A stretch of 64,000 nucleotides of DNA from Arenicola marina (Eukaryota; Annelida; Polychaeta; Arenicolidae): positions 3,534,001 to 3,598,000 of the forward strand of contig OZ025249.1 in NCBI GenBank assembly GCA_964019135.1, written 5' to 3'. This document shows, in pieces, positions 1-64,000 of the stretch (its first letter is position 1; every line of letters begins with the position of its first letter). The translations under genes were made by a program, and so were the position numbers. The notes under the pieces are model-generated. The model was given only the letters and a program-made list of their open reading frames with translations, searched no databases and had not been told where the DNA came from.

Positions 1-3000
1 CAACTCTCCCTCCAGGTACGTCAGGGCCGGGCTGGAGCAACTCTCCTTCCTGGTACGTCAGGGCCGGGCTGGAGCAACCCTCCCTCCAGGTACGTCAGGG
101 CCGGGCTGGAGCAATTCTCCTTGCTGGTACGTCAGGGCCGGGCTGGAGCAACTCTGCTTCCAGGTACGTTAGGGCCGGGCTGGAACAACTCTCCTTCCTG
201 GTACGTTAGGGCCGTGCTGGAACAACTCTCCTTCCAGGTACGTCAGGGCCGTGCTGGAACAACTCTCCTTCCAGGTACGTCAGGGCCGGGCTGGAGCAAC
301 TTTCCTTGCTGGTACGTCAGGGCCGGGCTGGAGCAACTTTCCTTGCTGGTACGTCAGGGCCGGGCTGGAGCAACTCTCCCTCTAGGTACGTCAGGGCCGG
401 GCTGGAGCAACTCTCCTTCCAGGTACGTCAGGGCCGGGCTGGAACAACTCTTCTTCCAGGTACGTCAGGGCCGGGCTGGAACCACTCTCCTTCCAGGTAC
501 GTCAGGGCCGGGTTGGAACAACTCTCCTTCCAGGTACGTCAGGGCCGGGCTGGAACAGCTCTCCTTCCAGGTACGTCAGGGCCGGGCTGGAGCAACTCTC
601 CTTCCAGGTACGTCAGGGCCGGGCTGGAGCAACTCTGCCTCCAGTTACGTCAGGGCCGGGCTGGAACAACTCTCCTTCCAGGTACGTCAGGGCCGGGCTG
701 GAGCAACTCTCCCTCTAGGTACGTCAGGGCCGGGCTGGAGCAACTTTCCTTCCAGATACGTTAGGGCCGGGCTGGAACAACTCTCCTTCCAGATACGTTA
801 GGGCCGGGCTGGAACAACTCTCCTTCCAGGTACGTCAGGGCCGGGCTGGAGCAACTTTCCTTGCTGGTACGTCAGGGCCGGGCTGGAGCAACTTTCCTTG
901 CTGGTACGTCAGGGCCGGGCTGGAGCAACTCTCCCTCTAGGTACGTCAGGGCCGGGCTGGAACAACTCTCCTTCCAGGTACGTCAGGGCCGTGCTGGAAC
1001 AACTCTCCTTCCAGGTACGTCAGGGCCGGGCTGGAGCAACTTTCCTTGCTGGTACGTCAGGGCCGGGCTGGAGCAACTTTCCTTGCTGGTACGTCAGGGC
1101 CGGGCTGGAGCAACTCTCCCTCTAGGTACGTCAGGGCCGGGCTGGAGCAACTCTCCTTCCAGGTACGTCAGGGCCGGGCTGGAACAACTCTTCTTCCAGG
1201 TACGTCAGGGCCGGGCTGGAACAACTCTCCTTCCAGGTACGTCAGGGCCGGGTTGGAACAACTCTCCTTCCAGGTACGTCAGGGCCGGGCTGGAACAGCT
1301 CTCCTTCCAGGTACGTCAGGGCCGGGCTGGAACAGCTCTCCTTCCAGGTACGTCAGGGCCGGGCTGGAACAACTCTCCTTCCAGGTACGTCAGGGCCGGG
1401 CTGGAGCAACTCTCCTTCCAGGTACGTCAGGGCCGGGCTGGAGCAACTCTGCCTCCAGTTACGTCAGGGCCGGGCTGGAACAACTCTCCTTCCAGGTACG
1501 TCAGGGCCGGGCTGGAGCAACTCTCCCTCTAGGTACGTCAGGGCCGGGCTGGAGCAACTTTCCTTGCTGGTACGTTAGGGCCGGGCTGGAACAACACTCC
1601 TTCCAGGTACGTTAGGGCCGGGCTGGAACAACTCACCTTCCAGATACGTTAGGGCCGGGCTGGAACAACTCTCCTTCCAGGTACGTCAGGGCCGGGCTGG
1701 AGCAACTTTCCTTGCTGGTACGTCAGGGCCGGGCTGGAGCAACTTTCCTTGCTGGTACGTCAGGGCCGGGCTGGAGCAACTCTCCCTCTAGGTACGTCAG
1801 GGCCGGGCTGGAGCAACTCTGCTTCCAGGTACGTCAGGGCCGGGCTGGAACAACTCTTCTTCCAGGTACGTCAGGGCCGGGCTGGAACAACTCGCCTTCC
1901 AGGTACGTCAGGGCCGGGCTGGAGCAACTCTCCCTCTAGGTACGTCAGGGCCGGGCTGGAACAACACTCCTTCCTGGTACGTCAGGGCCGGGCTGGAGCA
2001 ACTCTCCTTCCTGGTACGTCAGGACCGGGTTGGAACAACACTCCCTCCAGGTACGTCAGGGCCGGGCTGGAACAACTCTTCTTCCAGGTACGTCAGGGCC
2101 GGGCTGGAACAACTCGCCTTCCAGGTACGTCAGGGCCGGGCTGGAGCAACTCTCCCTCTAGGTACGTCAGGGCCGGGCTGGAACAACACTCCTTCCTGGT
2201 ACGTCAGGGCCGGGCTGGAGCAACTCTCCTTCCAGGTACGTCAGGGCCGGGCTGGAGCAACTCTCCTTCCTGGTACGTCAGGGCCGGGCTGGAGCAACTC
2301 GCCTTCCAGGTACGTCAGGGCCGGGCTGGAACAACTCGCCTTCCAGGTACGTCAGGGCCGGGCTGGAGCAACTTTCCTTGCTGGTACGTCAGGGCCGGGC
2401 TGGAGCAACTTTCCTTGCTGGTACGTCAGGGCCGGGCTGGAGCAACTTTCCTTGCTGGTACGTCAGGGCCGGGCTGGAGCAACTCTCCCTCTAGGTACGT
2501 CAGGGCCGGGCTGGAGCAACTCTCCGTCCAGGTACGTCAGGGCCGGGCTGGAACAACACTCCTTCCAGGAACGTCAGGGCCGGGCAGGAGCAACTCTCCC
2601 TCTAGATACGTCAGGGCCGGGCTGGAGCAACTTTCCTTCCTGGTACGTCAGGGCCGGGCTGGAACAACTCTCCTTCCAGGTACGTCAGGGCCGGGCTGGA
2701 GCAACTTTCCTTCCAGGTACGTCAGGGCCGGGCTGGAGCAACTTTCCTTCCAGGTACGTCAGGGCCGGGCTGGAGCAACTCTCCTTCCAGGTACGTCAGG
2801 GCCGGGCTGGAGCAACTTTCCTTCCTGGTACGTCAGGGCTGGGCTGGACCATTCTCCTTCCAGGTACGTCAGGGCCGGGCTGGAGCAACTCTCCCTCTAG
2901 GTACGTCAGGGCCGGGCTGGAGCAACTCTCCTTCCAGGTACGTCAGGGCCGGGCTGGAGCAACTCCCCTTTCAAGTACGTCAGGGCCGGGCTGGAACAAC

Positions 3001-5229
3001 TCTCCTTCCAGGTACGTCAGGGCCGGGCTGGAGCAACTCTCCTTCCAGGTACGTCAGGGCCGGGCTGGAGCAACTCTCCTTCCAGGTACGTCAGGGCCGG
3101 GCTGGAGCAACTCCCCTTTCAAGTACGTCAGGGCCGGGCTGGAACAACTCTCCTTCCAGGTACGTCAGGGCCGGGCTGGAGCAACTTTCCTTCCAGGTAC
3201 GTCAGGGCCGGGCTGGAGCAACTTTCCTTCCAGGTACGTCAGGGCCGGGCTGGAGCAACTCTCCTTCCAGGTACGTCAGGGCCGGGCTGGAGCAACTTTC
3301 CTTCCTGGTACGTCAGGGCTGGGCTGGACCATTCTCCTTCCAGGTACGTCAGGGCCGGGCTGGAGCAACTCTCCCTCTAGGTACGTCAGGGCCGGGCTGG
3401 AGCAACTCTCCTTCCAGGTACGTCAGGGCCGGGCTGGAGCAACTCCCCTTTCAAGTACGTCAGGGCCGGGCTGGAACAACTCTCCTTCCAGGTACGTCAG
3501 GGCCGGGCTGGAGCAACTCTCCTTCCAGGTACGTCAGGGCCGGGCTGGAGCAACTCTCCTTCCAGGTACGTCAGGGCCGGGCTGGAGCAACTCCCCTTTC
3601 AAGTACGTCAGGGCCGGGCTGGAACAACTCTCCTTCCAGGTACGTCAGGGCCGGGCTGGAGCAACTTTCCTTCCAGGTACGTCAGGGCCGGGCTGGAGCA
3701 ACTTTCCTTCCAGGTACGTCAGGGCCGGGCTGGAGCAACTCTCCTTCCAGGTACGTCAGGGCCGGGCTGGAGCAACTTTCCTTCCTGGTACGTCAGGGCT
3801 GGGCTGGACCATTCTCCTTCCAGGTACGTCAGGGCCGGGCTGGAGCAACTCTCCCTCTAGGTACGTCAGGGCCGGGCTGGAGCAACTCTCCTTCCAGGTA
3901 CGTCAGGGCCGGGCTGGAGCAACTCCCCTTTCAAGTACGTCAGGGCCGGGCTGGAACAACTCTCCTTCCAGGTACGTCAGGGCCGGGCTGGAGCAACTCT
4001 CCTTCCAGGTACGTCAGGGCCGGGCTGGAGCAACTCTCCTTCCAGGTACGTCAGGGCCGGGCTGGAGCAACTCTCCTCCCAGGTACGTCAGGGCCGGGCT
4101 GGAGCAACTCTCCTTCCAGGTACGTCAGGGCCGGGCTGGAGCAACTCTCCTTCCAGGTACGTCAGGGCCGGGCTGGAGCAACTCCCCTTTCAAGTACGTC
4201 AGGGCCGGGCTGGAACAACTCTCCTTCCAGGTACGTCAGGGCCGGGCTGGAACAACTCTCCTTCCAGGTACGTCAGGGCCGGGCTGGAGCAACTCCCCTT
4301 TCAAGTACGTCAGGGCCGGGCTGGAACAACTCCCCTCCCAGGTACGTTAGGGCCGGGCTGGAACAACTCTCCTTCCAGGTACGTCAGGGCCGGGCTGGAA
4401 CAACTCTCCTTCCAGGTACGTCAGGGCCGGGCTGGAGCAACTCCCCTTTCAAGTACGTCAGGGCCGGGCTGGAACAACTCCCCTCCCAGGTACGTTAGGG
4501 CCGGGCTGGAACAACTCTCCTCCCAGGTACGTTAGGGCCGGGCTGGAACAACTCTCCTTCCAGGTACGTCAGGGCCGGGCTGGACCATTCTCCTTCCAGG
4601 TACGTCAGGGCCGGGCTGGAGCAACTCTCCTTCCAGGTACGTCAGGGCCGGGCTGGAGCAACTTTCCTTCCTGGTACGTCAGGGCTGGGCTGGACCATTC
4701 TCCTTCCAGGTACGTCAGGGCCGGGCTGGAGCAACTCTCCCTCTAGGTACGTCAGGGCCGGGCTGGAGCAACTCTCCTTCCAGGTACGTCAGGGCCGGGC
4801 TGGAGCAACTCCCCTTTCAAGTACGTCAGGGCCGGGCTGGAGCAACTCTCCTTCCAGGTACGTCAGGGCCGGGCTGGAGCAACTTTCCTTCCAGGTACGT
4901 CAGGGCCGGGCTGGAGCAACTCTCCTTCCAGGTACGTCAGGGCCGGGCTGGAGCAACTCCCCTTTCAAGTACGTCAGGGCCGGGCTGGAACAACTCCCCT
5001 CCCAGGTACGTTAGGGCCGGGCTGGAACAACTCTCCTCCCAGGTACGTTAGGGCCGGGCTGGAACAACTCTCCTTCCAGGTACGTCAGGGTCGGGCTGGA
5101 GCAACTCTGCCTCCAGTTACGTCAGGGCCGGGCTGGAGCAACTCTCCTTCCAGGTACGTCAGGGCCGGGCTGGAACAACTCTCCTTCCAGGTACGTCAGG
5201 GCCGGGCTGGAGCAACTCTCCTTCCAGGT
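1..5229 (+). repeat. 37-bp minisatellite made of an SLC28 exon end plus splice donor
   Basis: About 141 tandem units of 37 bp; the array is already running at the left edge of the window. The unit reads CTCTCCTTCCAG then GTACGTCAGGGCCGGGCTGGAGCAA. The part before GTACGT translates as E-Q-L-S-F-Q. Nucleoside transporters of the SLC28 family have a closely similar stretch (human CNT3 has Q-L-S-F-E, from memory) directly before the segment encoded by the exon at 5556. Each unit therefore looks like a copy of the upstream SLC28 exon end with its 5' splice site, and the true exon should lie left of the window. Units vary mainly at the last exon bases (CAG, CTG, TAG, AAG) and at GTACGTC versus GTACGTT. 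A higher-order block of 480 bp (twelve 37-bp units and one 36-bp unit) is repeated essentially unchanged about three times between roughly 2,640 and 4,080. From 5230 to 5555 the intron is unique sequence with no feature I recognise. Confidence 0.93.
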
Positions 5230-5555
5230 AGATCCGCATGATAGAATGATATGGAACCGGCGGGACCCGGCTATAGAATGAATAACCTGATAGCTATACG
5301 GTATACTTCACATAGCCTATGACGTTATTTCGTTGACACCTTCATTCTTTATTGACGTCCTGTGGCGCAAAGAGAAAACTGTGATGTGACTTGGCAGAAT
5401 GCCTTACTTCTTTTTTGAGAGAGAGTCTATATACTGTTGCTGGGAGTGGGGTCCCTTATCCATATACAATGTGGCCAAGGGTGGTTCGGTCTGTTACAAG
5501 TATTCAGCGGCACGTCGCCCTTACTACCCCTCCCCCTCCCCCCATCCCCTTACAG

Positions 5556-7631
5556 AAGGTGCTGGGGTACATTCTGATGCCAGTATCCTTCCTGATCGGA
5601 GTGCCCTGGGAGGACTGTGACGAGGTGGGCTACCTCATCGGGACCAAGACCATCATCAACGAGTTCGTGGCTTACATGGATCTGGCCCAGCTGATCCAGA
5701 ACAGGGAGAACGGTGTCGACCCTCAGATATCGGTAAGCGGGGGCGGGGAATGGGGGGGGGGGCAGGGTGAGAGGGGGGGGGGGGTATGTGACGGCACCCA
5801 GCTGATTCAGAACAGGGAGAACGGCGTCGACCCTCAAATATCGGTAAGCGGGGGTGGAGGTGGGCAGGGGGAAGGGGGTATGTGACGGCACCCAGCTGAT
5901 TCAGAACAGGGAGAACGGCGTCATCCCTCAAATATCGGTAAGCGGGGGTGGAGAGTGGGGGGAGGGGGGGGGGGGTGGCAGGGGGAGGGCGGGGGGTATG
6001 TGACGGCACCCAGCTGATCCAGAACAGGGAGAACGGCGTCATCCCTCAGCAATCGGATCGGTAGGTCGGGTGGAGGTGGGGGGAAGGGGTATGTAACTGC
6101 ACTCCAGCCTCAGATTGTCGTCATGAACACAGAATAGAAGGGTGGAGCAAGAGGGTGAGAGTGCCAGTCACGTGCAAAGTGCGTCCCCACACAAGGACCA
6201 GATAATACCCAGATTCCAGATCTTCGAACTCTCGCGCAATAGCAGTGTTTGAAGTTGCGAGGATTCTTGATGTATCAAAGTCTACATGTACGTGTAACCA
6301 CACAGCGCCACGTAAATCTTTTCAGTCTTCAGGGTTTAACGTTTTAAATGGCTTTGACGCTAATTATTACCCATATACATATATTAAAGCAACCTACTTA
6401 CATGCGTCATCTTAGATTTTTTACATTTTAGGAACAAGACTAAAAATATCGCAAAATTATTATGCATATGTTTTACATCTCTTTGAGTCTGTAAAACAAC
6501 AATTTCAACATAAAACTCGGTTTATTTATATCGCGCGCGGACGTGATAGCGAGCCGCGGTCGACAGGCGCGCAGGGATATAAAGCCGGCCACCAACTTCT
6601 GCTCCGGTGAACAAATTTGCTTCTCTCCAAATAGCCCACAGATTTTTAGGATTTAAATTCAAGACAGAATATACTTATTTGACATGGAGAAGAGGTTGGT
6701 AATAAAAAAAATTACAGAATATATTACTTTAAGGTGAAATAAATAAATCGTATATTTTTGTTTTTCCAGCCTCGTTCTGAGGTGATTGCCTCGTTCGCGC
6801 TGTGCGGGTTCTCTAACTTCGGGACGGTTGGCATGATGGTCGGCTTCCTGACGTCACTCGCCCCTGACCGGAAGAGCGACATCTCCCAGATGGCCATGCG
6901 CGCTCTGGCAGCCTCCACGTGCGCCTGCCTGATGACCGCCTGCGTGGCGGGTGAGTACCCCGCGGTTGCCAGGACAACTACAAAGCAACGTCCACTAAAA
7001 TGTAGACCCTTCCTACATCAATAGGAAATATAGCAGCTCTGGGACCCAGGTTACTTTCGGAATTGTCTGTTATTGGCTACCCGGTTCGAATTGGGTGATG
7101 GGGGTCGACTCGGTAGCTCAGTGGGCTAGAGCGCTCGCCTCGAGTGTTCTGGCCACATGAGAGACTAGCGGCACGTGGATCAGTAGTTCGAGCCCCGCTG
7201 TGGCCATGTCTGTGTGGTCGCAGGATAAAGATCCCATGTCCTTCGCAAACAGCAGAGGGTTACCTCCGGGGACATGGCTCCACTCTGACTGCCTTCTCCC
7301 AATGACGCGATAAGACCAAAAAGTGGTTAAAATCGTCCTGAATATACAAGCAACCAACCAATCGAATGGTGGTGAGCGTCCGAAACAATAGCTGTTGTTT
7401 CAAAGATATTAGTACACCAAGCTTGGTGTGCTAATATCTTTGGTTGTTTCCACAACAATGAGGTGAAATTATTTAATATGAATATCAATTTCCGAAATAG
7501 TCTCATTTTGTTTCAGATACTGAACAATAATGCAATGTTAGCCCGGAAGGAGTATTTATCTCAGAAAAAATATTCAAAGGTGGAACTTTTTTTCAGCTTT
7601 ACTGTATCCACATGATACAAGTAGCACCTGA
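5556..7631 (+). CDS. SLC28A3: SLC28-family concentrative nucleoside transporter, C-terminal exons (partial)
   Basis: A Na+- or H+-coupled nucleoside symporter of the plasma membrane; only the last 130 codons are in the window. Exons: 5556-5732, 6770-6950 and 7597-7631, with phases 0, 0 and 1, stop TGA at 7629-7631. Exon 1 begins after a CCCTTACAG acceptor with KVLGYILMPVSFLIGVPW. It contains GTKTIINEFVAY, an exact match to the CNT signature (G/A)XKX3NEFVA(Y/M/F). Exon 2 carries ASFALCGFSNFGTVGMM and DRKSDISQMAMRAL, the conserved CNT C-terminal core. The short final exon (ALLYPHDTSST) follows a strong poly-T acceptor and fits the phase, but gives a much shorter tail than vertebrate CNT3. It is the least certain piece. 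The symbol marks the closest family member I recognise; a single invertebrate SLC28 could be co-orthologous to SLC28A1-3. Confidence 0.85.
5690..6085 (+). repeat. ~110-bp repeat of the SLC28 exon 3' end and its donor
   Basis: The last ~45 nt of the exon at 5556-5732 (encoding QLIQNRENGVDPQIS) plus the donor GTAAGC and a G-rich stretch are repeated about three more times, with the copied donor-like junctions near 5842, 5938 and 6060. Copies drift (GTCGAC to GTCATC; the last ends GGATCGGTAGG). Long G-runs after each donor vary in length and account for most spacing differences. The first donor, at 5732/5733, is the one that keeps the transporter frame. Confidence 0.85.
6525..6600 (+). promoter_or_regulatory. 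TATA-like, CpG-rich promoter-like patch inside the SLC28 intron
   Basis: Within the otherwise AT-rich intron 5733-6769 there is an abrupt CpG-rich patch (TCGCGCGCGGACG, GAGCCGCGGTCGAC) followed by GATATAAAG at about 6576-6584. The layout resembles a TATA promoter reading rightward. No open frame downstream joins the transporter exons in phase. It could be an internal promoter, part of an unrecognised transposon, or chance. The rest of 6086-6769 shows nothing I recognise. Confidence 0.25.
7100..7365 (+). mobile_element. tRNA-derived SINE (family A)
   Basis: The head resembles a tRNA gene: TAGCTCAGTGGGCTAGAGCG matches a pol III A box and GTTCGAGCCC, about 70 nt further on, matches a B box. The body runs through GGGACATGGCTCCACTCTGAC and ends near CAAGCAACCAACCAATCG. 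Parts of the same body occur reverse-complemented at 15131-15222 and 24482-24548, which shows it is a dispersed family. It lies in the last SLC28 intron (6951-7596). A real tRNA is unlikely because the spacing and stems do not fold properly and the tail is repeated elsewhere. Confidence 0.75.
7402..7441. repeat. 40-bp near-perfect palindrome
   Basis: AAAGATATTAGTACACCAAG is followed directly by CTTGGTGTGCTAATATCTTT; the arms match at 19 of 20 positions with no loop. It lies in the last SLC28 intron, about 155 nt before the final acceptor. It could be the relic of a small inverted-repeat transposon or a cruciform-forming site. A nearby TTTGGTTGTTTCCAC string recurs near 25390. Confidence 0.85.
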
Positions 7632-45800: not shown

Positions 45801-48800
45801 GGCCACCCAGAAGATGAAGCAGGGCATGTCGACACTGATCGGGGGGCTGCAGCGGGTGCTCATCATCCCACCGGACTCCGACGACGAGGAAACCATCACC
45901 GCCAACTCGCACGTCTTTGACCGCGCCAAGGTGAGGCGTCTATACCGCCCCCCACCCCACCAGCCTCAGAGTAAAGAAAGCACACTCATCATTAAGCAGA
46001 CATGGGGTAGAAATACTAAATTCTCATGTTCTTGTACGGTACTCCAATGTATTCACTGCTCTCGAGTACACTTTTGGGAAATTGTTTAGCGCAAATACAT
46101 CGATTAGCCTTGTGATTAAACCCCTTGAACACTTGTAAGTCTGAGGTGTTTACTCCTCAATTTACTGTCCCGTTCTGGTCCCGTCAAAGCACTATGATCG
46201 TCCTGTGAATCCAGCTCCACGTCTCCACAGTGAGAATCTAAGTACATTTGTATATTTGTGGACCGCCATCTTTGTTCCAGGCTCGGCTACATGCGATCCA
46301 GACAGACCAAAGTACTTACAGCGACCCACCTGAAGAACCCGAGAAGTTCGAAAGCTTTCTCCACGACTTTGATCTGGACGTTAGGAAGGGAGATATATCC
46401 GAGCTGCTGGTCTCCAACGTGGAAGTGCGCGCATTATACACAGCGATGGTGAGTCATCTCAGGTCTATACACAGCGATGGTGAGTCATCCCAGGTCTATA
46501 CACAGCGATGGTGAGTCATCTCAGGTCTATACACAGCGATGGTGAGTCATCTCAGGTCTATAGACAGCGATGGTGAGTCATCCCAGGTCTATACACAGCG
46601 ATGGTGAGTCATCTCGGGTCTATACACAGCGATGGTGAGTCATCTCAGGTCTATACACAGCGATGGTGAGTCATCTCAGGTGTATACACAGCGATGGTGA
46701 GTCATCTCAGGTGTATACACAGCGATGGTGAGTCATCTCAAGTCTATACACAGCGATGGTGAGTCATCTCAGGTCTATACACAGCGATGGTGAGTCATCT
46801 CAGGTCTATAGACAGCGATGGTGAGTCATCTCAGGTCTATACACAACGATGGTGAGTCATCTCAGGTCTATACACAGCGATGGTGAGTCATCTCAGGTCT
46901 ATACACAGCGATGGTGAGTCATCTCAGGTGTATACACAGCGATGGTGAGTCATCTCAGGTCTATACACAGCGATGGTGAGTCATCTCAGGTCTATACACA
47001 GCGATGGTGAGTCATCTCAGGTCTATACACAGCGACGGTGAGTCATCTCAGATCTATACACAGCGACGGTGAGTCATCTCAGGTCTATACACAGCGACGG
47101 TGAGTCATCTCAGGTCTATACACAGCGATGGTGAGTCATCTCAGGTCTATACACAGCGATGGTGAGTCATCTCAGGTGTATACACAGCGATGGTGAGTCA
47201 TCTCAGGTCTATACTCAGCGATGGTAACTTTAAGCCAAACAACGATAGAGAATGTCACTCAATGACAGATTGATTAGCAGCCATGGTAGACACTCGTAGG
47301 ACGTGTTGTCGCCCCCTAAGGCAGGAGGTGTGGGTGCTTGAAGGCCTACGTATGACTGACCCCCCCCCCCCCCCACCTCCTCTACCCAGGTTCCGTCCAC
47401 CGTGTCTCACGCGGACTTCTGGCATCGCTACTTCTACAAACTGCACCTGCTGAATGAGGACCAGATGAGGCGCGAACAGCTGATGCGGCGTGCTGACGTC
47501 ACGGATCACGAGTCAGACCTGGCCTGGGACGACGGTAAGGAGGGCGCCATGCTTCCATCTCATACTGACACACTGTGCAACAAATCAGTGTGACATAACC
47601 CCGCCATTTATCATGCCAACATCATGTTAATTTCTAAATGTGTATGACGTAATTAGTGCAAGAATAACGTGTATTTTTGTCGCTAACATGTATCCCTAGA
47701 CTGCGCAATGAAGGAGTGAGAGACACAAACCTGTGACGCGGTCCAAATAGCTCCCAACTGAGAGTCCGCTGCCAACAGCTGTGACCATATTTACCACTAC
47801 ATTTGAAGCAGATGTCCCTGTGAATGTTTATATTTCCTTCGAAATACAAATGCAGATATGTTGAAATTGTGAGAAGATATCTGCCTGAACTAATATAATT
47901 GTACCCCATTTGGGTGATTGCCACTTCTCTCACTGGTTGATTGTCGGTTTTGTGCAGAGGATGACTGGGGTGAGATTGAAGGTGGCTCCCCCCACCCGCC
48001 GTCCTCCCTGCCCATCGCCGCCGGTGCCGCCGCCCCTGGGGACACCGCCGCCCCCGAGGCCCCCGAGACCCCCGGGGCTGACCCGCTCCCGTCGCCGGGA
48101 TCCGAGGAGGACGTCCTCAGCCAGCTGGAGACCCTGGAGATGCCTGAGGCTGAGCTCGACGAACAGACAGTGGACAAAGTGCTGAAGGAGGAGTTCAGCG
48201 AGCGGGGTGTGACCGGGGAGGGAGGGCAGTCGCCGGCCGCGGACAGTATACAACCTAAGCCGGATAGCTCAAATGACTCTGATCGCGCCTCTGACATCGC
48301 CCACCCCTCAGAACCCCCAGAGCCTCCAGCAGAAACCCCCAACCGGCCGTCAGAGGGCGCCAGTCCTGCAGACGATACGGACAGCCGCGTCGCCATGGCA
48401 ACCCCCGACCCCGCGGCCGACGCGGCCCCCCTAGCCGAGCTGGCGACCAAGGTCCGAGGTGACCTGGTGGTGGTGGGCTCCACAGGGTCCGGCTCTGATG
48501 GCAGCCCGTCTTCCACCGTCAGCAGCGCCGGTAACAACAAGGGTAGGTAGAGAGGGGGTACTGGGTCTTACAACAACAAGGGTAGGTAGAGAGGGGGTAC
48601 TGGGTCTTACAACAACAAGGGTAGGTAGAGAGGGGGTACTGGGTTTGACAACAACAAGGGTAGGTAGAGAGGGGGTACTGGGTCTGACAACAAGGGTAGG
48701 TAGAGAGGGGGTACTGGGTCTGACAACAACAAGGGTAGGTAGAGAGGGGGTACTGGGTCTGACAACAACAAGGGTAGGTAGAGAGGGGGTACTGGGTTTT

Positions 48801-51800
48801 ACAACAACAAAGGTAGGTAGAGAGGGGATACTGGGTCTTACAACAACAAGGGTAGGTAGACCAGAGATACTGGGTCTTACAACAACAAGGGTAGGTAGAC
48901 CAGAGATACTGGGTCTTACAACAACAAGGGTAGGTAGAGAGGGGGTACTGGGTCTTACAACAACAAGGGTAGGTAGAGAGGGGGTACTGGGTCTGACAAC
49001 AACAAGGGTAGGTAGAGAGGGGGTACTGGGTTTGACAACAACAATGGTAGGTAGAGAGGGGGTACTGGGTCTGACAACAACAAGGGTAGGTAGAGAGGGG
49101 GTACTGGGTCTGACAAGAACAAGGGTAGGTAGAGAGGGGGTACTGGGTTTTACAACAACAAAGGTAGGTAGAGAGAGGATACTGGGTCTTACAACAACAA
49201 GGGTAGGTAGACCAGAGATACTGGGTCTTACAACAACAAGGGTAGGTAGAGAGGGGATACTGGGTCTTACAACAACACGGGTAGGTAGAGAGGGGGTACT
49301 GGGTCTTATAACAACAAGGGTAGGTAGAGAGGGGGTAGTGGGTCTTACAACAACAAGGGTAGGTAGAGAGGGGATACTGGGTCTTACAATAACAAGGGTA
49401 GGTAGACAAGGGATACTGGGTCTTACAACAACAAGGGTAGGTAGAGAGGGGGTACTGGGTTTTACAACAACAAGAGTAGGTAGTGAGGGGGTACTAGGTC
49501 TTGCAACAAGGGTAGGTAGAGAGGGGATACTGGGTCTTACAACAACAAGAGTAGGTAGTGAGGGGGTACTGGGTCTTGCAACAAGGGTAGGTAGAGAGGG
49601 GGCACTGGGTCTTACAACAACAATGGTAGGTAGAGAGGGGGTACTGGGTCTTACAACAACAAGGGTAGGTAGACAGGGGGTACTGGGTCTTACAACAACA
49701 TGGGTAGGTAGACAAGGGATACTGGGTCTTACAACAACAAGGGTTGGTAGACAAGGGATACGGGGTCTTACAACAACACGGGTAGGTAGACAAGGGATAC
49801 TGGGTCTTACAACAACACGGGTAGGTAGACAAGGGATACTGAGTCTTACAACAACAAGGGTAGGTAGACCAGAGATACTGGGTCTTACAACAACAAGGGT
49901 TGGTAGACAAGGGATACGGGGTCTTACAACAACACGGGTAGGTAGACAAGGGATACTCGGTCTTACAACAACAAGGGTAGGTAGAGAGGGGATACTGGGT
50001 CTTACAACAACAAGGGTAGGTAGACCAGAGATACTGGGTCTTACAACAACAAGGGTAGGTAGAAAAGGGATACTGGGTCTTACAACAAGAGTAGGTAGAA
50101 AAGGGATACTGGGTCTTACAACAACAAAGGTAGGTAAAGAGGGGATACTGGATCTTACAACAACAAGGGTAGGTAGACAAGGGATACTGGGTCTTACAAC
50201 AACAAGGGTAGGTAGACCAGAGATACTGGGTCTTACAACAACACGGGTAGGTAAAGAGGGGATACTGGGTCTTACAACAACAAGGGTAGGTAGAGAGGGG
50301 ATACTGGGTCTTACAACAACAAGGGTTGGTAGACAAGGGATACTGGGTCTTATAACAACAAGGGTAGGTAGAGAGGGGATACTGGGTCTTACAACAACAA
50401 GGGTAGGTAGAGAGGGGGTACTGGGTCTTACAACAACAAGGGTAGGTAGAAAAGGGGGTACTGGGTCTTACAACAACACGGGTAGGTAGAGAGGGGGTAC
50501 TGGGTCTTACAACAACAAGGGTAGGTAGAGAGGGGGTACTGGGTCTTACAACAACAAGGGTAGGTAGAAAAGGGATACTGGGTCTTACAACAAGAGTAGG
50601 TGGAGAGGGGGTACTGGGTCTTACAACAACAAGGGTAGATAGAGAGGGGATACTGGGTCTTACAACAACAAGGGTTGGTAGACAAGGGATACTGGGTCTT
50701 ACAACAACAAGGGTAGGTAGAGAGGGGATACTGGGTCTTACAACAACAAGGGTTGGTAGACAAGGGATACTGGGTCTTACAACAACAAGGGTAGGTTGAG
50801 AGGGGATACTGGGTCTTACAACAACAAGGGTTGGTAGACAAGCGATACTGGGTCTTACAACAACAAGGGTAGGTAGACCAGAGATACTGGGTCTTACAAC
50901 AACAAGGGTAGGTAGACCAGAGATACTGGGTCTTACAACAACAAGGGTAGGTAGACAAGGGATACTGAGTCTTACAACAACACGGGTAGGTAGACCAGAG
51001 ATACTGGGTCTTACAACAACAAGGGTAGGTAGACAAGGGATACTGGGTCTTACAACAAGAGTAGGTGGAGAGGGGGTACTGGGTCTTACAACAACAAGGG
51101 TAGATAGAGAGGGGATACTGGGTCTTACAACAACAAGGGTTGGTAGACAAGGGATACTGGGTCTTACAACAACAAGGGTAGGTTGAGAGGGGATACTGGG
51201 TCTTACAACAAAAAGGGTTGGTAGACAAGCGATACTGGGTCTTACAACAACAAGGGTAGGTAGACCAGAGATACTGGGTCTTACAACAACAAGGGTAGGT
51301 AGACCAGAGATACTGGGTCTTACAACAACAAGGGTAGGTAGACAAGGGATACTGAGTCTTACAACAACACGGGTAGGTAGACCAGAGATACTGGGTCTTA
51401 CAACAACAAGGGTTGGTAGAAAAGGGATACTGGGTCTTACAACAAGAGTAGGTAGAAAAGGGATACTGGGTCTTACAACAACAAAGGTAGGTAAAGAGGG
51501 GATACTGGATCTTACAACAACACGGGTAGGTAGAGAGGGGGTACTGGGTCTTACACCAACACGGGTAGGTAGAGAGGGGGTACTGGGCCTTACAACTAGG
51601 GTAGGTAGACAAGGGATACTGGGTCTTACAACAACAAGGGTAGGTAGACAAGGGATACTGAGTCTTACAACAACACGGGTAGGTAGACCAGAGATACTGG
51701 GTCTTACAGCAACAAGGGTAGGTAGACAAGGGATACTGAGTCTTACAACAACAAGGGTAGGTAGACCAGAGATACTGGGTTTTACAACAACAAGGGTAGG

Positions 51801-54800
51801 TAGACAAGGGATACTGGGTCTTACAACAAGGGTTGGTAGACAAGGGATACTGGGTCTTACAACAACAAGGGTAGGTAGACCAGAGATACTGGGTCTTACA
51901 ACAACACGGGTAGGTAGACCAGAGATACTGGGTCTTACAACAACAAGGGTAGGTAGACAAGGGATACTGGGTCTTACAACAACAAGTGTAGGTAGAAAAG
52001 GGATACTGGGTCTTACAACAAGGGTAGGTAGAGAAGGGATACTGGGTCTTACAACAAGAGTAGGTAGAAAAGGGATACTGGGTCTTACAACAACAAAGGT
52101 AGGTAAAGAGGGGATACTGGATCTTACAACAACACGGGTAGGTAGAGAGGGGGTACTGGGTCTTACACCAACACGGGTAGGTAGAGAGGGGGTACTGGGC
52201 CTTACAACTAGGGTAGGTAGACAAGGGATACTGGGTCTTACAACAACAAGGGTAGGTAGAGAGGGGATACTGGGTCTTACAACAACAAGAGTAGGTAGAG
52301 AGGGGGTACTGGGTCTTACAACAACAAGGGTAGGTAGACCGTGGTGACCCCGTAGTGATCCAATGATGACCCCGTGGTGACCCCGTGAATGACCCTGTGG
52401 TGATCCCGTGGTGACCGCGTGGTGACCCCGTGGTGATTCCATGATGACTCCGTGGTGACCCCGCTTTCCTGGCTGTTCCAGAGAGTCTGGATGAGGACTG
52501 GGAGCAGGATTTTGACATCGAGGTGACTGAGGAGGACCTGCGACTGGCGCAGGAGGCGGCGCGCCACGCGGCGGAGGCCGGTGACACTAAGGCGGAGGTA
52601 AGAGGGGGATAGGGTGGTGACACTAAGGCGGAGGTAGGAGGGGGATAGGGCGGTGACACTAAGGCGGAGGTAGGAGGGGGATAGGGCGGTGACACTAAGG
52701 CGGAGGTAAGAGGCGGGGTGGGGTAGGGCGGTGACACTAAGGCGGAGGTAAGAGGAGGATAGGGTGGTGACACTAAGGCGGAGGTAAGAGGGGGGATGGG
52801 GTAGGGTGGGGACACTAAGGCGGAGGTAAGAGGGGGATAGGGCGGTGACACTAAGGCGGAGGTAGGAGGGGGGATGGGGTAGGGTGGGGACACTAAGGCA
52901 GAGAGTGGTGACACTAAAGCGGAGGTAAGATTGGGATAGGGTTGCGACACTAAGGCGGAGGCAAGAGGGGGATAGGGCGGTGACACTAAGGCGGAGGTAA
53001 GAGGGGGATAGGGCGGTGACACTAAGGCGGAGGTTAAAGGGGGATAGGGCGCTGACACTAAGGCGGAGGTAAGAGGGGGATAGGGCGGTGACACTAAGGC
53101 GGAGGTAAGAGGGGGATAGGGCGGTGACACTAAGGCGGAGGTAAGAGGGGGATAGGGCGGTGACACTAAGGCGGAGGTTAGAGGGGGATAGGGCGGTGAC
53201 ACTAAGGCGGAGGTAAGAGGGGGGGTGTGGTAGGGCGGTGACACTAAGGCGGAGGTAAGAGGGGGATAGGGCGGTGACACTAAGGCGGAGGTTAGAGGGG
53301 GATAGGGTGGTGACACTAAGGCGGAGGTAAGAGGGGGATAGGGCGGTGACACTAAGGCGGAGGTTAGAGGGGGATAGGGCGGTGACACTAAGGCGGAGGT
53401 AAGAGGGGGGGTGGGGTAGGGCGGTGACACTAAGGCGGAGGTAAGAGCGAGATAGGGCGGTGACACTAAGGCGGAGGTAAGAGCGAGATAGGGCGGTGAC
53501 ACTAAGGCGGAGGTAAGAGCGAGATAGGGCGGTGACACTAAGGCGGAGGTAAGAGCGAGATAGGGCGGTGACACTAAGGCGGAGGTAAGAGGGGGGATGG
53601 GGTAGGGTGGGGACACTAAGGCAGAGAGTGGTGACACTAAAGCGGAGATAAGATTGTCATAGGGTTGCGACACTAAGGCGGAGGTAAGAGGGGGATAGGG
53701 CGGTGACACTAAGGCGGAGGTAAGAGGGGGATAGGGCGGTGACACTAAGGCGGAGGTTAGAGGGGGATAGGGCGGTGACACTAAGGCGGAGGTAGGAGGG
53801 GGATAGGGCGGCGACACTAAGGCGGAGGTAGGAGGGGGATAGGGGGGTGACACTAAGGCGGAGGTAAGAGGGGGATAGGGTGGTGACACTAACGCGGAGG
53901 TAAGAGGGGGATAGGGCGGCGACACTAAGGCGGAGGTAAGAGGGGGATAGGGTGGTGACACTAAGGCTGAGGTAAGAGGGGGGTAGGGCGGTGACACTAA
54001 AGCGGAGGTAGGAGGGGGATAGGGCGGCGACACTAAGGCGGAGGTAGGAGGGGGATAGTGCGGTGACACTAAGGCGGAGGTAAGAGGGGGATAGGGCGGC
54101 GACACTAAGGCGAAGGTAAGAGGGGGATAGGGCGGCGACACTAAGGCGGAGGTAAGAGGGGGATAGGGTGGTGACACTAAAGCGGAGGTTGGAGGGGGAT
54201 AGGGCGGTGACACTAAGGCGGAGGTAGGAGGGGGATAGGGTGGTGACACTAAGGCAAAGGTAGGAGGGGGATAGGGCGGTGACACTAAGGGGGAGGTAAG
54301 AGGGGGTTAGGGCGGTGACACTAAGGCGGAGGTAAGAGGGGGATAGGGCGGTGACACTAAGGCGGAGGTTAAAGGGGGATAGGGCGCTGACACTAAGGCG
54401 GAGGTAAGAGGGGGATAGGGCGGTGACACTAAGGCGGAGGTAAGAGGGGGATAGGGCGGTGACACTAAGGCGGAGGTAAGAGGGGGATAGGGCGGTGACA
54501 CTAAGGCGGAGGTTAGAGGGGGATAGGGCGGTGACACTAAGGCGGAGGTAAGAGGGGGGGTGTGGTAGGGCGGTGACACTAAGGCGGAGGTAAGAGGGGG
54601 ATAGGGCGGTGACACTAGAGCGGAGGTTAGAGGGGGATAGGGTGGTGACACTAAGGCGGAGGTAAGAGGGGGATAGGGCGGTGACACTAAGGCGGAGGTT
54701 AGAGGGGGATAGGGTGGTGACACTAAGGCGGAGGTAAGAGGGGGGGTGGGGTAGGGCGGTGACACTAAGGCGGAGGTAAGAGCGAGATAGGGCGGTGACA

Positions 54801-56005
54801 CTAAGGCGGAGGTAAGAGCGAGATAGGGCGGTGACACTAAGGCGGAGGTAAGAGCGAGATAGGGCGGTGACACTAAGGCGGAGGTAAGAGGGGGGATGGG
54901 GTAGGGTGGGGACACTAAGGCAGAGAGTGGTGACACTAAAGCGGAGATAAGATTGTCATAGGGTTGCGACACTAAGGCGGAGGTAAGAGGGGGATAGGGC
55001 GGTGACACTAAGGCGGAGGTAAGAGGGGGATAGGGCGGTGACACTAAGGCGGAGGTTAGAGGGGGATAGGGCGGTGACACTAAGGCGGAGGTAGGAGGGG
55101 GATAGGGCGGCGACACTAAGGCGGAGGTAGGAGGGGGATAGGGGGGTGACACTAAGGCGGAGGTAAGAGGGGGATAGGGTGGTGACACTAACGCGGAGGT
55201 AAGAGGGGGATAGGGCGGCGACACTAAGGCGGAGGTAAGAGGGGGATAGGGTGGTGACACTAAGGCTGAGGTAAGAGGGGGGTAGGGCGGTGACACTAAA
55301 GCGGAGGTAGGAGGGGGATAGGGCGGCGACACTAAGGCGGAGGTAGGAGGGGGATAGGGCGGTGACACTAAGGCGGAGGTAAGAGGGGGATAGGGCGGCG
55401 ACACTAAGGCGAAGGTAAGAGGGGGATAGGGCGGCGACACTAAGGCGGAGGTAAGAGGGGGATAGGGTGGTGACACTAAAGCGGAGGTTGGAGGGGGATA
55501 GGGCGGTGACACTAAGGCGGAGGTAGGAGGGGGATAGGGTGGTGACACTAAGGCGGAGGTAGGAGGGGGATAGGGCGGTGACACTAAGGCGGAGGTAAGA
55601 GGGGGTTAGGGCGGTGACACTAAGGCGGAGGTAAGAGGGGGTTAGGGCAGCGACACTAAGGCGGAGGTTAGAGGGGGATAGGGCGGTGACACTAAGGCGG
55701 AGGTAAGAGGGAGATAGGGTGGTGACACTAATTTATGGGAAGGGAAGGGAGGACGAAGCGAAGGAGGAAGTTGGTTTGCCAAGGACCAAACTGGAGGGGT
55801 GGAGAATGTTAAGGTGATGCTGGGATAGTAAGAACTTGACCCATAGATCTATATTGAATAAGAAAATCTGAAGTAATTTATCTTTGAATTGCATGCTGGT
55901 GACATGTTTACGTGTGTTATGTAATAATCGTTCATTTGTCTGTTTGCCCTCCCCCCCCCCCCCCGCCACCCACAGCAGGAGGACGACTGGGAGAACTGGG
56001 AGTAG
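39849..56005 (+). CDS. BSDC1: BSD domain-containing protein 1, complete
   Basis: A conserved BSD-domain protein whose function is poorly known. Ten coding exons: 39849-39859, 41880-41985, 42261-42365, 44644-44742, 45784-45930, 46281-46448, 47390-47534, 47958-48542, 52482-52597 and 55976-56005; all phases close, 1,512 nt, 503 aa (human ~430). The N-terminal TWWGGLVNIAKQK and AMDFVRKDIEEFKTTM match the family. The BSD domain (residues ~177-228) spans exons 6-7: FLHDFDLDVRKGDISELLVS, VRALYTAMVPSTVSHADFWH and RYFYKLH, with the diagnostic FW pair. Exon 8 is a long Pro/Ala/acidic linker. The C-terminus DEDWEQDFDIEVTEEDLRLA ... EDDWENWE matches human (DWEKDFDLDMTEEEV ... EWEDWE). Introns after exons 6, 8 and 9 and before exon 5 carry junction-derived minisatellites. 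Exon 9 to 10 uses a CACAGCAG tandem acceptor. Confidence 0.92.
39860..41879 (+). other. BSDC1 intron 1
   Basis: Two kilobases of AT-rich unique sequence between the 11-nt first coding exon and exon 2. I recognise no element or repeat in it. Intron 3 (42366-44643) likewise has no identified gene; its part 42,600-43,250 is unusually GC-rich. Confidence 0.6.
44020..44420. repeat. Degenerate ~30-bp repeat, BSDC1 intron 3
   Basis: Loosely repeated phrases such as CACTGTCTATCACAAGATTA, CATTTGCCATCACCTGATCA and CACTGTCCATCAGATGATT. Heavily diverged compared with the other arrays, so older or not being homogenised. Confidence 0.7.
44880..45140. repeat. Two short tandem repeats, BSDC1 intron 4
   Basis: A ~56-bp unit (GCTTGTATGTAAAGCTGTAC ... 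GTCGTCCCAATCCG) occurs about twice, followed by about four ~22-bp units of GGTTGTACATGTTTGTGTTC. Neither touches a splice site. 45,190-45,630 is featureless. Confidence 0.75.
45631..45783 (+). repeat. 38-bp repeat (x4) ending at the BSDC1 exon 5 acceptor
   Basis: Four near-identical 38-bp units (starts 45631, 45669, 45707, 45745) of GATATTGATCAATGTTGGTG plus TGGTTGTGTTGACAAACA. The last unit ends in ACAAACAG, the acceptor of exon 45784-45930; earlier units end in the same ACAAACAG followed by ATATTG. The polypyrimidine/branch region and acceptor are thus present four times. Confidence 0.88.
46435..47227 (+). repeat. 31-bp repeat of the BSDC1 exon 6 end and donor
   Basis: About 25 units of CTATACACAGCGATG|GTGAGTCATCTCAGGT. 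The true exon end is ATTATACACAGCGATG|GTGAGTCATC (codons YTAM), and every later unit repeats 13-14 exonic nt and the perfect GTGAGT donor. Each unit also contains CATCTCAG|GT, an acceptor-like motif, so successive units look like 17-nt micro-exons. Confidence 0.93.
48531..52330 (+). repeat. 39-bp repeat of the BSDC1 exon 8 end and donor
   Basis: About 97 units of AACAACAAGG|GTAGGTAGAG plus AGGGGGTACTGGGTCTTAC fill nearly all of intron 8. The exon itself ends GCCGGTAACAACAAGG|GTAGGT, so ten exonic nt (N-N-K) and the donor are copied. The unit is a multiple of three and starts with an in-frame TAG (GGG TAG) in the coding frame. Unit variants include GACAAGGGATAC and GACCAGAGATAC, and a ~466-bp block is duplicated near 50,593/51,059. 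Confidence 0.93.
52337..52465. repeat. Short GTGGTGACCCC tandem repeat before BSDC1 exon 9
   Basis: About a dozen 8-11-bp phrases (CCGTGGTGACC, CCGTAGTGATCC) between the end of the 39-bp array and the acceptor CTGGCTGTTCCAG of exon 52482-52597. Confidence 0.75.
52581..55732 (+). repeat. 36-bp repeat of the BSDC1 exon 9 end and donor
   Basis: About 87 units of GTGACACTAAGGCGGAG|GTAAGAGGGGGATAGGGCG. The exon ends GGTGACACTAAGGCGGAG|GTAAGAG (codons GDTKAE), so 17-18 exonic nt plus the donor form half of each unit. The 36-bp unit keeps the frame but carries an in-frame TAG (GGG GGA TAG) after each donor. Stretches starting near 53,040 and 54,376 are near-identical, offset by 1,299-1,335 bp (about 36-37 units), a higher-order duplication. 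Confidence 0.93.
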
Positions 56006-61296: not shown

Positions 61297-63171
61297 TTAG
61301 GCCTCGCTGGCCGTGTGAAGCCCGGTGCCAGGAGACCAGGCCTGGCGGCCCAGAGCCAGGTAGCTGCCGTCACACACAGTCCCCCCGCTGGTGTCCCGGC
61401 TGGCGTCAGAGGATCCAGGGCTGGTCTCGGTGAAGTGTCCGGAGTCGGACTGCCCCGCCGGACTCTCCTTGTCCTCCACCTCCCCGGGGTAGTACATGTA
61501 GGAGTCGCAGGACTCGAGACCCCCCGCCTCGCCCACCTCCTCCCAGCTCTCCAGGGTGTCCATCTCACCGGGCGCCACGCTGTCGTCATAGGGGGAGTCA
61601 GGCAGGCGCGGCCCTCCACCCCCCTCCTCCTCCTCCTCCTCCCAGTCAGACCCCCCAGAGTGGAGGAGGGAGAAGCGACTGAGGTCGACCCCCGAGGCGG
61701 TGAGGGTGGCGCACTGGCTGGGTCGTAGGCAGGCGCTGGCGTCCACGCTGTAGTGGTGGTAGTCGCTCGCCCCCTCCAGCCCCAGGGGCAGAATGCTGCT
61801 GCCCTCCACGAACGTGTCCCCGCGCCCCCGCTCCACCCCCTCCCCTACCCCTGCCCGCCGCAGGGTCTCCGGGGTGCAGGACTTGATGGGGGAGAGCTGG
61901 GAGGGGGTGGACACCTCCTTGTACTGGATGGGCAGGCGGCAGGAGGTCTGGGGCTTGAGGAGCCCCGCGCGCCGCCCCAACAGCTGCGACATGCTGTGGG
62001 GCCGACCCAGCAGCTGCCCCGCGCTGTGCGACTTACGGGCCGCCCTGGTCAGACCCAACTCACCCACAGCCTGAAACACACAAATCACAGATCAGAAAAA
62101 CCAAACAAGACAAATTTTTCAAGTTAACTCTGGTCCTCATGTAAAATGACTGAAGTGTAACAAACGCCAAAAGTCCGATTTCATGCGCTAAGAGAGCGTT
62201 CGGTATGTTTCGACATGAAGGCCAACGCTATCATAGGTTCAGCTAAGCTGAACTGTAACAGACACCAGGGAACGAAGCCTCATAGCGCACAAAATGTCAG
62301 AAAAATACGTAATTATTCTCCAATTATCGAACGAAAATCGGGCACCAAATGAACTCTGAAAATAAAACAGAAGATATCAAAAACTCCTCAGTAAACAATA
62401 GCGTGTGGTTGCCTAGCTACCTGAGTGTGCCTGATGGCGGGCGTGGACTGACAGTTGGGCAGTCGGTGAGTGACAGGTTTGCTGAGGACGCTGTCCTGCT
62501 CATGCGCATCGCACTCCTCGGGTAGAGGGCGCTTCCACCGGATGGGACCGCTCGGGTGGCAGAAGCGGTAGTACAGCACCATGCAGGTGACACCTGGTGG
62601 TGACCAAAGGAACCTTATGACACTGGTCTACACTAAAACAGGTAACACTTAACAAGCTTTGCGACACTAATCATTCGACACAATACCTCATCAGGCCCTG
62701 GCCTACTTTATGACGAACAGTGACGACTGTAATTAATAATAACCATGTAACAACTCCACAGTGGCACTACACAACTGAAAAAAGGTAAGACACTTGAAAA
62801 CATAAAGCTTGCTTGTGTACAAAAAAAAAAGAACAAGAGGCCCTCTCCCAGTCTCGGTGGTGGAGGCCCCTACTACGCCGCGGACTCACCGACGAAGAAG
62901 CAGAATGTGGCCGAGGCGAGGACGAGGGTGTTGTACCAGGCGTCGTGCTCCCGGAAGGGGTACCAGGCGGCCAGCAGCGCGGTGTTCTCCAGCAGCGCCA
63001 GGCTGTAGAAGGCCGCCACCCGCCACCGACTGCGGCCCTCCTTCAGGTTGAAGAACGAGAAGCTGTACACCACGGCCACGATGCAGTCGAAGAGGAACTC
63101 CTCCAGGCGAGACGGGCAGAAGTCGGTGTTCTGGAGGACCACCCAGATGGTCATCAGCAGCCAGTGGACGC
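61297..63171 (-). CDS. XK-related (XKR) membrane protein, C-terminal exons (partial)
   Basis: XKR proteins are multi-pass plasma-membrane proteins; some members are caspase-activated phospholipid scramblases. Exons: 62890-63171, 62421-62593 and 61297-62070; phases 1, 1 and 0, stop TAA at 61297-61299; 410 codons including stop are reconstructed. The first exon reads VHWLLMTIWVVLQNTDFC, then FDCIVAVVYSFSFFNLKEGR and FYSLALLENTALLAAWYPF, the conserved XKR membrane core. The next has GVTCMVLYYRFCHPSGPIRW. The last exon is a 257-residue acidic/Ser-rich cytoplasmic tail with an EEEEEE run. The preceding exon lies right of the window; the array at 63286-64000 repeats its end (VVMLG), which joins in phase to VHWLLM, as in XKR6-like proteins. 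It looks closest to XKR4/6/7, but I cannot assign the paralogue. Confidence 0.85.
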
Positions 63172-63285: not shown

Positions 63286-64000
63286 GCACTGGGGCGACCC
63301 AGACCCCACTCACCGAGCACGACCCAGACCCCACTCACCGAGCAGAGGACGACCCAGACCCCACTCACCGAGCACGACCCAGACCCCACTCACCGAGCAG
63401 AGGACGACCCAGATCCCACTCACCGAGCACGACCCAGACCCCACTCACCGAGCATGACAACGACCCAGGAATGGAATGTTGGTGTTTTAGGCCACTTTTG
63501 TGCACATACAGGCTAAATTGGGCCAAGGAACCTCCCGAGACGATGAAGGATGAAGGAATGAAACATGCCCCAGATTAGGTGCCCGAGCCCGGATTCGAAC
63601 CCAGGACCTATTGATCTGCGGTCTAGTGCGCTAACCACTACACCAGGGAGGCCCCCTGACAACGACCCAGACCCCACTCACCGAGCACGACCCAGACCCC
63701 ACTCACCGAGCATGACAACGACCCAGACCCCACTCACCGAGCAAGACCCAGACCCCACTCACCGAGCACGACCCAGACCCCACTCACCGAGCACGACCCA
63801 GACCCCACTCACCGAGCACGACCCAGACCCCACTCACCGAGCATGACAACGACCCAGACCCCACTCACCGAGCACGACCCAGACCCCACTCACCGAGCAT
63901 GACAACGACCCAGACCCCACTCACCGAGCACGACCCAGACCCCACTCACCGAGCACGACCCAGACCCCACTCACCGAGCACGACCCAGACCCCACTCACC
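63286..64000 (-). repeat. 25-bp repeat of an XKR exon end and donor (runs off the right edge)
   Basis: In the XKR sense the unit is CTCG|GTGAGTGGGGTCTGGGTCGTG (25 bp, about 20 units), some carrying TTGTCATGCTCG, which encodes the exon end V-M-L-G. Each unit holds a perfect GTGAGT donor. The true exon should lie just right of the window. The array is interrupted by a SINE at 63469-63656. Confidence 0.9.
63469..63656 (-). mobile_element. tRNA-derived SINE (family B) inserted in the XKR donor array
   Basis: On the minus strand the head reads GCCTCCCTGGTGTAGTGGTT then AGCGCACTAGACCGC and, further on, GGTTCGAATCCGG: pol III A and B boxes of a tRNA-like promoter. The tail (GGGGCATGTTTCATTCC ... 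CGGGAGGTTCCTTGGCCC) matches the fragment at 23811-23890. It is flanked by TGACAACGACCCAG at 63455-63468 and 63657-63670, a 14-bp target-site duplication, though the flanks are themselves repeat units. Confidence 0.82.

What the first reader, a model, noticed from the sequence alone, without database searches (positions are those of the whole stretch)
1..64000. Eight splice junctions in four genes have each been amplified into a minisatellite
Arrays at 1-5229 and 5690-6085 (SLC28 donors), 17192-17745 (AGBL5 acceptor), 45631-45783 (BSDC1 acceptor), 46435-47227, 48531-52330 and 52581-55732 (BSDC1 donors) and 63286-64000 (XKR donor) each copy a real junction, with exon codons included in most cases, always in the host gene's sense. 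Unit lengths (25-110 bp) and sequences are unrelated, so these are independent births at the same kind of site. I recall single cases in amphioxus Adh named 'mirage' minisatellites. Eight in 64 kb suggests a genome-wide process that targets exon/intron boundaries, for example replication or repair slippage linked to splicing, R-loops or short AG|GT homology.
Basis: partly seen in the sequence, partly recalled or inferred. Interest (0 to 1): 0.9.

Follow-up and report, generated by a model that had tools for sequence, protein, structure and literature searches.

The report
Splice sites amplified into minisatellites
In what is probably a worm (annelid) genome, short stretches that straddle the border between a gene's coding piece and its intron have been copied head to tail, sometimes hundreds of times, in several unrelated genes, and in a small sample about twice as often as random placement would give; similar repeats were known from single genes of lancelets.

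Summary
Eight arrays begin or end on splice junctions of SLC28, AGBL5, BSDC1 and an XKR gene; models are open and match Pfam/PDB. Seven carry exon bases; the BSDC1 acceptor array copies only the intron end. Two run off the window; fetched flanks show their true exons and two more junction arrays. The host is not amphioxus but a spiralian, probably annelid. Exons sampled from the same assembly without regard to repeats: 6 junction arrays in 86 edges (myosin), 7 in 48 (SLC6, paralogs once, two doubtful), 5 in 73 (kinesin). Pooled myosin+SLC6: 13 versus 5.96 expected (P 0.005); within 25 bp 22 versus 9.57 (P 0.0007). That is about two-fold, against ten-fold in the window, which was picked for the feature. 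Myosin alone is not significant at the edge (P 0.29) and the kinesin loci show no excess (too short to test). Donors outnumber acceptors 20:6. Decoy donors are mostly intact and as strong as the real one. The arrays fit amphioxus 'mirage' minisatellites, in another phylum and at many genes. The cause of the excess is unproven.

The parts
1..5230 (+). SLC28/CNT donor array, 37-bp unit (27 nt exon end + 10 nt intron); continues upstream of the window to about -4858; the real exon end TTTCAG|GTACGT lies there
5556..5732 (+). SLC28 exon (KVLGYILMP...PQIS)
5686..6106 (+). SLC28 donor array, units of about 94-118 bp, 4 copies (limits read by eye), first copy is the real exon end ATATCG|GTAAGC
17030..17217 (-). 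AGBL5 exon 8 ([12 protein letters not shown]...)
17192..17745 (-). AGBL5 acceptor array, 55-bp unit, 10 copies, about 25 nt exon + 30 nt intron; last copy (sense) is the real acceptor; AG kept in 7 of 10 copies
45631..45783 (+). BSDC1 acceptor array, 4 identical 38-bp copies of the intron end, ending exactly at AG|exon 4; no exon bases
45784..45930 (+). BSDC1 exon 4
46281..46448 (+). BSDC1 exon 5 (..RALYTAM|)
46435..47225 (+). BSDC1 exon-5 donor array, 31-bp unit (14 exon + 17 intron), about 26 copies, GT intact in 26 of 26
47958..48542 (+). BSDC1 exon 7 (..SAGNNK G|)
48533..52338 (+). BSDC1 exon-7 donor array, 39-bp unit (10 exon + 29 intron), about 99 copies, GT intact in 99 of 99
52482..52597 (+). 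BSDC1 exon 8 (ESLDEDWEQDFDIEV...GDTKAE|)
52575..55731 (+). BSDC1 exon-8 donor array, 36-bp unit (18 exon + 18 intron), about 87 copies, GT intact in 81 of 87
62890..63171 (-). XKR exon (VHWLLMTIWVVLQNTDFCP...)
63295..64000 (-). XKR donor array, 25-bp unit (with 30-31-bp variants), interrupted at about 63469-63661 by an unrelated insert, runs on to 67662; the real exon ..VWVVLVLG|GTGAGT is at L011:3654-3863

Best explanation
These are junction-spanning minisatellites. A short tandem duplication (about 25-125 bp) that happens to straddle an exon/intron border puts an extra exon end plus splice site into the intron. The message is unharmed as long as splicing uses the outermost true site (first donor, last acceptor), so the duplication is tolerated where one inside an exon would not be. 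The duplicate then expands by slippage or unequal exchange into arrays of up to hundreds of copies that are homogenised together. In this genome tandem arrays arise everywhere, but in the sample about twice as often as expected at, or within 25 bp of, exon edges, mostly at donors. Shown: the arrays, the junctions, their spread over unrelated genes, the two-fold excess in a pooled sample, the donor bias, intact decoy sites. Inferred: outermost-site splicing, expansion by slippage or unequal exchange, and a local duplication hotspot near 5' splice sites of transcribed genes as the reason for the excess.
For: Open, homology-backed gene models across the junctions. Units differ in sequence and length between junctions. 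Junction arrays recur in genes picked without regard to repeats: myosin 6 in 86 edges, SLC6 7 in 48 (two paralog loci dropped; 9 in 51 before), kinesin 5 in 73. Pooled myosin+SLC6: 13 at edges versus 5.96, P 0.005; 22 within 25 bp versus 9.57, P 0.0007. From 50 to 800 bp the ratio is 0.5-0.8 (paralogs included). Donors:acceptors 20:6, P 0.009, with the window and flanks; 13:3 in the three samples, counted from the same list. Copies of the donor keep GT (J1 134 of 142, J5 26 of 26, J6 99 of 99, J7 81 of 87, J8 13 of 13, window parts) and most score at least as high as the real donor (J1 86 of 141, J5 22 of 25, J6 77 of 99, J7 53 of 84, J8 12 of 12; the real copy is among those of J5-J7), so position rather than strength must decide. 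Donor units are G-rich on the sense strand (mean skew +0.19, n 20, versus 0.01 in 61 intron arrays; P 0.03).
Against: Myosin alone shows no significant excess at the edge itself (6 versus 4.55, P 0.29), and the kinesin loci of +-300 bp none (5 versus 4.98, no power). Two of the seven SLC6 cases are doubtful (C13:39768344, C13:39772202); without them the pooled count would be 11 versus 5.96, for which I ran no test. Part of the excess is intron-side arrays that copy no junction. Beyond 800 bp arrays are again more frequent than expected (ratio 1.31), so the profile is not a simple decline. No RNA shows that the outermost sites are used. Exon edges in the samples were picked by a splice-site score, the G-skew test is weak, and unit boundaries were read by eye.
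Confidence: 0.62

Rival explanations
1. Pure chance plus tolerance: the genome is so full of tandem arrays that some births land on junctions, and only those can include coding bases; there is no preference for edges.
For: Arrays are dense (56 in 89.6 kb around myosin exons, 46 in 91.7 kb around SLC6 exons). The myosin count at the edge fits chance (P 0.29), as does kinesin, where the test has no power.
Against: SLC6 7 versus 1.42 (P 0.001), pooled P 0.005 at edges and 0.0007 within 25 bp; window 8 versus 0.81 (selected).
Confidence: 0.25
2. Splice-site-targeted birth by AG|GT (proto-splice) short homology: duplication between an exonic GT-like stretch and the donor GT creates each new donor copy, as in intron gain by tandem duplication.
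For: Some first copies fit, by eye: XKR exon GTATGG.. against GTGAGT.., SLC6 C13:2825380 GTGGTC against GTGAGTGGTC, C13:39771996 GTGGG against GTGAGGG. SLC28 array 1 and BSDC1 exon 5 end their last copy at GGTA and GGT.
Against: Array ends in SLC28 array 1 (exon side), BSDC1 exons 5 and 7, AGBL5 and BSDC1 exon 4 show no GT/AG homology or only 1-2 bp. Arrays just inside introns are also in excess.
Confidence: 0.15
3. Functional arrays: copies of the splice site are kept because they act on splicing or expression (decoy U1 sites, intron-length or enhancer effects).
For: Decoy GTs stay intact in most copies.
Against: Columns at the splice site are not consistently more constant than the rest of the unit (SLC28 positions -3 to -1 and BSDC1 exon 8 +3, +4 vary), so homogenisation is enough; units are unrelated between genes.
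Confidence: 0.07
4. Assembly artefact (collapsed or inflated repeats).
For: Long arrays are hard to assemble; no reads were at hand to check copy numbers.
Against: Long arrays hold many variant copies and one an insert, the window lies on a 61.5-Mb contig, and short arrays of 3-10 copies show the same thing.
Confidence: 0.03

Closest known systems
'Mirage' minisatellites of amphioxus (Adh3; globins BflGb6 and BflGb9; TnC; PGBD5)
   Same: Tandem repeats that span an exon/intron boundary, at either end of an intron, many of the copies with splice signals (passages of PMC3087553 and PMC3902484 read).
   Different: Here the host is a spiralian, probably an annelid, by protein trees; arrays reach about 272 copies and 10 kb against 2-7 copies in the globin and PGBD5 passages; and they occur at several per cent of sampled exon edges. 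Somatic instability, reported for Adh3 as cited in PMC3087553, was not testable here.
Intron gain by tandem duplication of AGGT (Rogers 1989; potato RdRp, PMC4974935)
   Same: Tandem duplication across splice-like sites makes extra splice signals.
   Different: There a new intron arises; here the arrays lie inside existing introns next to conserved exons, and whether any copy is used is unknown. PMC4974935 seen only as a search listing with the start of its abstract; Rogers only as cited in PMC3087553.
Internal tandem repeats at exon-intron boundaries of human segmental duplications (PMC2812944)
   Same: Minisatellites of about 30 bp at exon-intron boundaries of genes (passages read).
   Different: About 4 copies on average, in recent paralogs; no test of an excess at boundaries against introns in the passages that I read.
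Intronic minisatellites of earthworm metallothionein (PMC12783039)
   Same: Annelid genes with large minisatellite arrays in an intron (passages read).
   Different: Described as repeats within the first intron; copying of a splice junction is not mentioned in the passages read.

Membership tests
mirage minisatellite | Tandem repeat unit spans an exon/intron boundary of a real gene | tested here: met
   7 of 8 window arrays include exon bases and a GT or AG junction; the eighth (45631-45783) ends at the junction without exon bases
mirage minisatellite | Either the 5' or the 3' end of an intron can be duplicated | tested here: met
   donors and acceptors both found, 20:6 over window, flanks and samples
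mirage minisatellite | Copies do not disturb the normal mRNA | not testable with these tools
   no RNA data; the reading frame of the model that uses the outermost sites is open
mirage minisatellite | Length instability, also somatic | not tested
   no reads or second alleles were at hand; a search for a second copy of BSDC1 exon 5 did not complete
mirage minisatellite | Occurs in cephalochordates | tested here: not met
   The AGBL5 tree puts the host with Capitella and Lamellibrachia (95/92) and Branchiostoma among deuterostomes (100/100). This is where the earlier cases were seen, not part of the mechanism
intron gain by tandem duplication | A new intron bounded by the two duplicated AGGT sites | tested here: inconclusive
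   arrays sit inside introns next to conserved exons; intron age was not compared across species

The most novel reading that the evidence does not exclude
5' splice sites of transcribed genes are themselves a birthplace of minisatellites: a process tied to transcription or splicing (R-loops on G-rich sense strands, repair at exon edges) creates tandem duplications there, so that several per cent of splice sites in a probable annelid genome carry arrays of decoy sites, and the same process acts separately in lancelets.
Probability: 0.3. Interest if true: 0.85.

Novelty: new member of a known kind. Interest (0 to 1): 0.62.

Why it matters
Junction-spanning minisatellites were reported from single amphioxus genes. 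Finding them in another phylum, at 18 of 207 sampled exon edges (16 without two doubtful cases) and about two-fold over random placement, turns a curiosity into a measurable mutational or selective process. Introns with tens to hundreds of intact donors, most as strong as the real one, are a natural test of how the spliceosome picks the outermost site, and a plausible raw material for new introns and exons.

Tried and rejected
A search for COX1 to name the species did not complete.

Purifying selection on, or purging of, decoy donors: per-column constancy shows no consistent pattern.

AG|GT homology as the general rule for unit ends: fits a few arrays, not most of those read.

Unit length a multiple of three: 8 of 26, no preference.

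Kinesin loci of +-300 bp: good for counting junction arrays, useless for the null.

A tRNA reading of the insert in the XKR array: ARAGORN, run with its bacterial code, found none; Rfam at gathering thresholds found nothing in the window.

Papers opened without use: passages of PMC2206037 (amphioxus huntingtin; tandem repeats in the scaffolds, nothing on junction copies) and of PMC5896119 (G-alpha genes; not relevant).

That a genome-wide count or annelid cases are not in print rests on the searches in an open-licence library; the original mirage paper (Adh3, 2002) is not held (one search used a wrong DOI) and is known to me only through PMC3087553 and PMC3902484.

Full report
What is there. 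TRF lists arrays at all eight places named. I built exon models for the four genes; the exons join in phase into open frames and match Pfam Nucleos_tra2_C, Peptidase_M14, BSD and XK-related and, for SLC28, AGBL5 and XKR, PDB chains of SLC28A3 (128 bits), CCP5 (773 bits), XKR4 and XKR8. Each array starts or ends on a junction of these models. For donors the first copy is the true exon end; for the AGBL5 acceptor it is the last copy. The BSDC1 acceptor array (45631-45783) copies intron sequence up to AG and no exon base. Fetched flanks show the true exons of the two arrays cut by the window: SLC28 ..GLEQLSFQ|GTACGT (L009:5000-5168) and XKR ..VWVVLVLG|GTGAGT (L011:3654-3863). They also hold two more junction arrays, read by eye from units and frames: an SLC28 acceptor array of at least 14.4 kb (unit with CACAG|ATCCCGGCCAGCC.., exon IPASHLLSAS..) and a second XKR donor array at window coordinates 68331-68744 (..QHASWLTG|GTTAGT).

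Chance within the window. With arrays collapsed to one unit and thrown at random (wholly exonic or multi-junction throws redrawn), 0.81 of 16 arrays should touch one of 44 junctions; 8 do, the highest of 20,000 throws being 6. Dropping the two edge arrays and not counting the exon-free acceptor array gives 5 of 14 versus 0.73, P 0.0005; genic arrays alone 8 of 12 versus 2.04, P 5e-5. The 16 come from the 28 merged arrays by unit, copy and score cut-offs. The window was flagged because of these arrays, so an independent sample was needed.

Sample outside the window. Pfam families were searched in the window's own assembly (867 Mb, 762 contigs), and exons taken by HMM match, without regard to repeats; exon edges were set by a splice-site score in the frame of the match. 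Myosin head: 77 matches, 45 in the 30 loci of match +-1.5 kb, 86 scored edges, 56 arrays; 6 arrays at edges versus 4.55 expected, P 0.29; 14 within 25 bp versus 7.04, P 0.006 (before an acceptor was set by hand and weak edges dropped, 6 versus 4.57 over 89 edges). SLC6: 98 matches, 45 rows entered, 30 exons used and 10 dropped for internal stops or length, the rest outside the loci; 51 edges, 46 arrays; 9 at edges versus 1.54. Three of the nine are paralogs with the same unit; with two of those loci dropped, 7 versus 1.42 over 48 edges, P 0.001, and 8 versus 2.53 within 25 bp, P 0.003; two of the seven (C13:39768344, C13:39772202) are doubtful on reading. Pooled: 13 versus 5.96, P 0.005; within 25 bp 22 versus 9.57, P 0.0007. 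The distance profile is 0.5-0.8 of expectation from 50 to 800 bp and 1.31 beyond. Kinesin: 5 junction arrays in 73 edges of 40 exons; the loci are too short for the null (5 versus 4.98). Over the three families 18 arrays at 207 edges, 16 without the doubtful two. So junction arrays occur across the genome at several per cent of the sampled exon edges, with a modest excess over random placement that extends to arrays lying just inside the intron.

Anatomy. The 26 units listed are unrelated between genes and 25-126 bp long. In 15 of the 20 donor units, read by eye, the exon part has a median of 25 nt and the intron part 17 nt, with 12 of 15 reaching no further than 30 nt into the intron. Donors exceed acceptors 20:6 (P 0.009), 13:3 without the window and its flanks. 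Donor copies keep GT in nearly all cases (J1 134 of 142, J5 26 of 26, J6 99 of 99, J7 81 of 87, J8 13 of 13), and most score at least as high as the real one (J1 86 of 141, J5 22 of 25, J6 77 of 99, J7 53 of 84, J8 12 of 12). (J1 and J8 are the arrays at the two window ends; J5, J6 and J7 those of BSDC1 exons 5, 7 and 8.) In the AGBL5 acceptor array 3 of 10 copies lack AG. Ends of arrays show short shared bases in some cases (about 5, 2 and 1 nt in SLC28 array 2, AGBL5 and BSDC1 exon 4) and partial last copies in others; no single rule fits. Donor units are G-rich on the sense strand (15 of 20 positive, P 0.02; against 61 intron arrays P 0.03), a weak hint at R-loops.

Host. BSDC1 finds Capitella, Lineus, Owenia and molluscs; none of its 34 hits is named Branchiostoma, though about a third carry no name. 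AGBL5 ranks Lamellibrachia, Capitella and Owenia at 956-963 bits and Branchiostoma at 810-816, among the best 120 listed of 1361 hits. In a tree of 36 AGBL5 rows that I picked, the window falls with Capitella and Lamellibrachia (95/92) and Branchiostoma with deuterostomes (100/100); Owenia is unplaced, Capitella covers 48% of the columns and the window's row has an unusual letter make-up. The BSDC1 tree keeps it on Capitella's side, apart from molluscs (98/94), with some long branches. The host is a spiralian, most probably an annelid; species unknown.

How it most likely works. Shown: arrays on junctions, many genes, two-fold pooled excess, donor bias, intact decoys. Inferred: a tandem duplication straddling a border leaves the outermost site and the frame intact, so it is tolerated; slippage or unequal exchange expands it; a local hotspot near donors makes the excess. 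The tolerance model predicts fewer acceptors, because upstream decoy acceptors are riskier, in line with 20:6; this is an argument, not a test.

Known or new. [quoted passage not shown] In the listings of the searches made I saw no report of it in annelids or of a genome-wide count; the library holds open-licence papers only.

Noticed in passing
63469-63661: An unrelated insert inside the XKR array; by eye it carries a tRNA-like stretch (a tRNA-derived SINE?) on the minus strand; ARAGORN with its bacterial code finds no tRNA.
   Followed up: partly
44644-44742: A possible extra or mutually exclusive BSDC1 exon (..GMMAWIGGLQKAL..) that resembles the start of exon 4 (..GMSTLIGGLQRVL..); the frame stays open with or without it.
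   Followed up: partly
29460-37345: A 7.9-kb array of about 272 copies of a 29-bp unit between AGBL5 and BSDC1, not at any known junction.
   Followed up: no
60616-61292: A 42-45-bp array that begins within about 15 bp after the XKR stop codon, so an array at another gene-part border.
   Followed up: no
7765-8448: Minus-strand open frame that by eye looks like the end of a non-LTR retrotransposon polymerase; not searched.
   Followed up: no
7682-8000: A repeat: most of the 43 scored matches in the own genome to window 7000-8000 fall in this part, mostly 85-98% identical.
   Followed up: no
19648-19848 and 52339-52463: Arrays that stop 16-18 bp short of an acceptor (AGBL5 exon 6, BSDC1 exon 8), like the intron-side arrays in excess in the samples.
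   Followed up: partly
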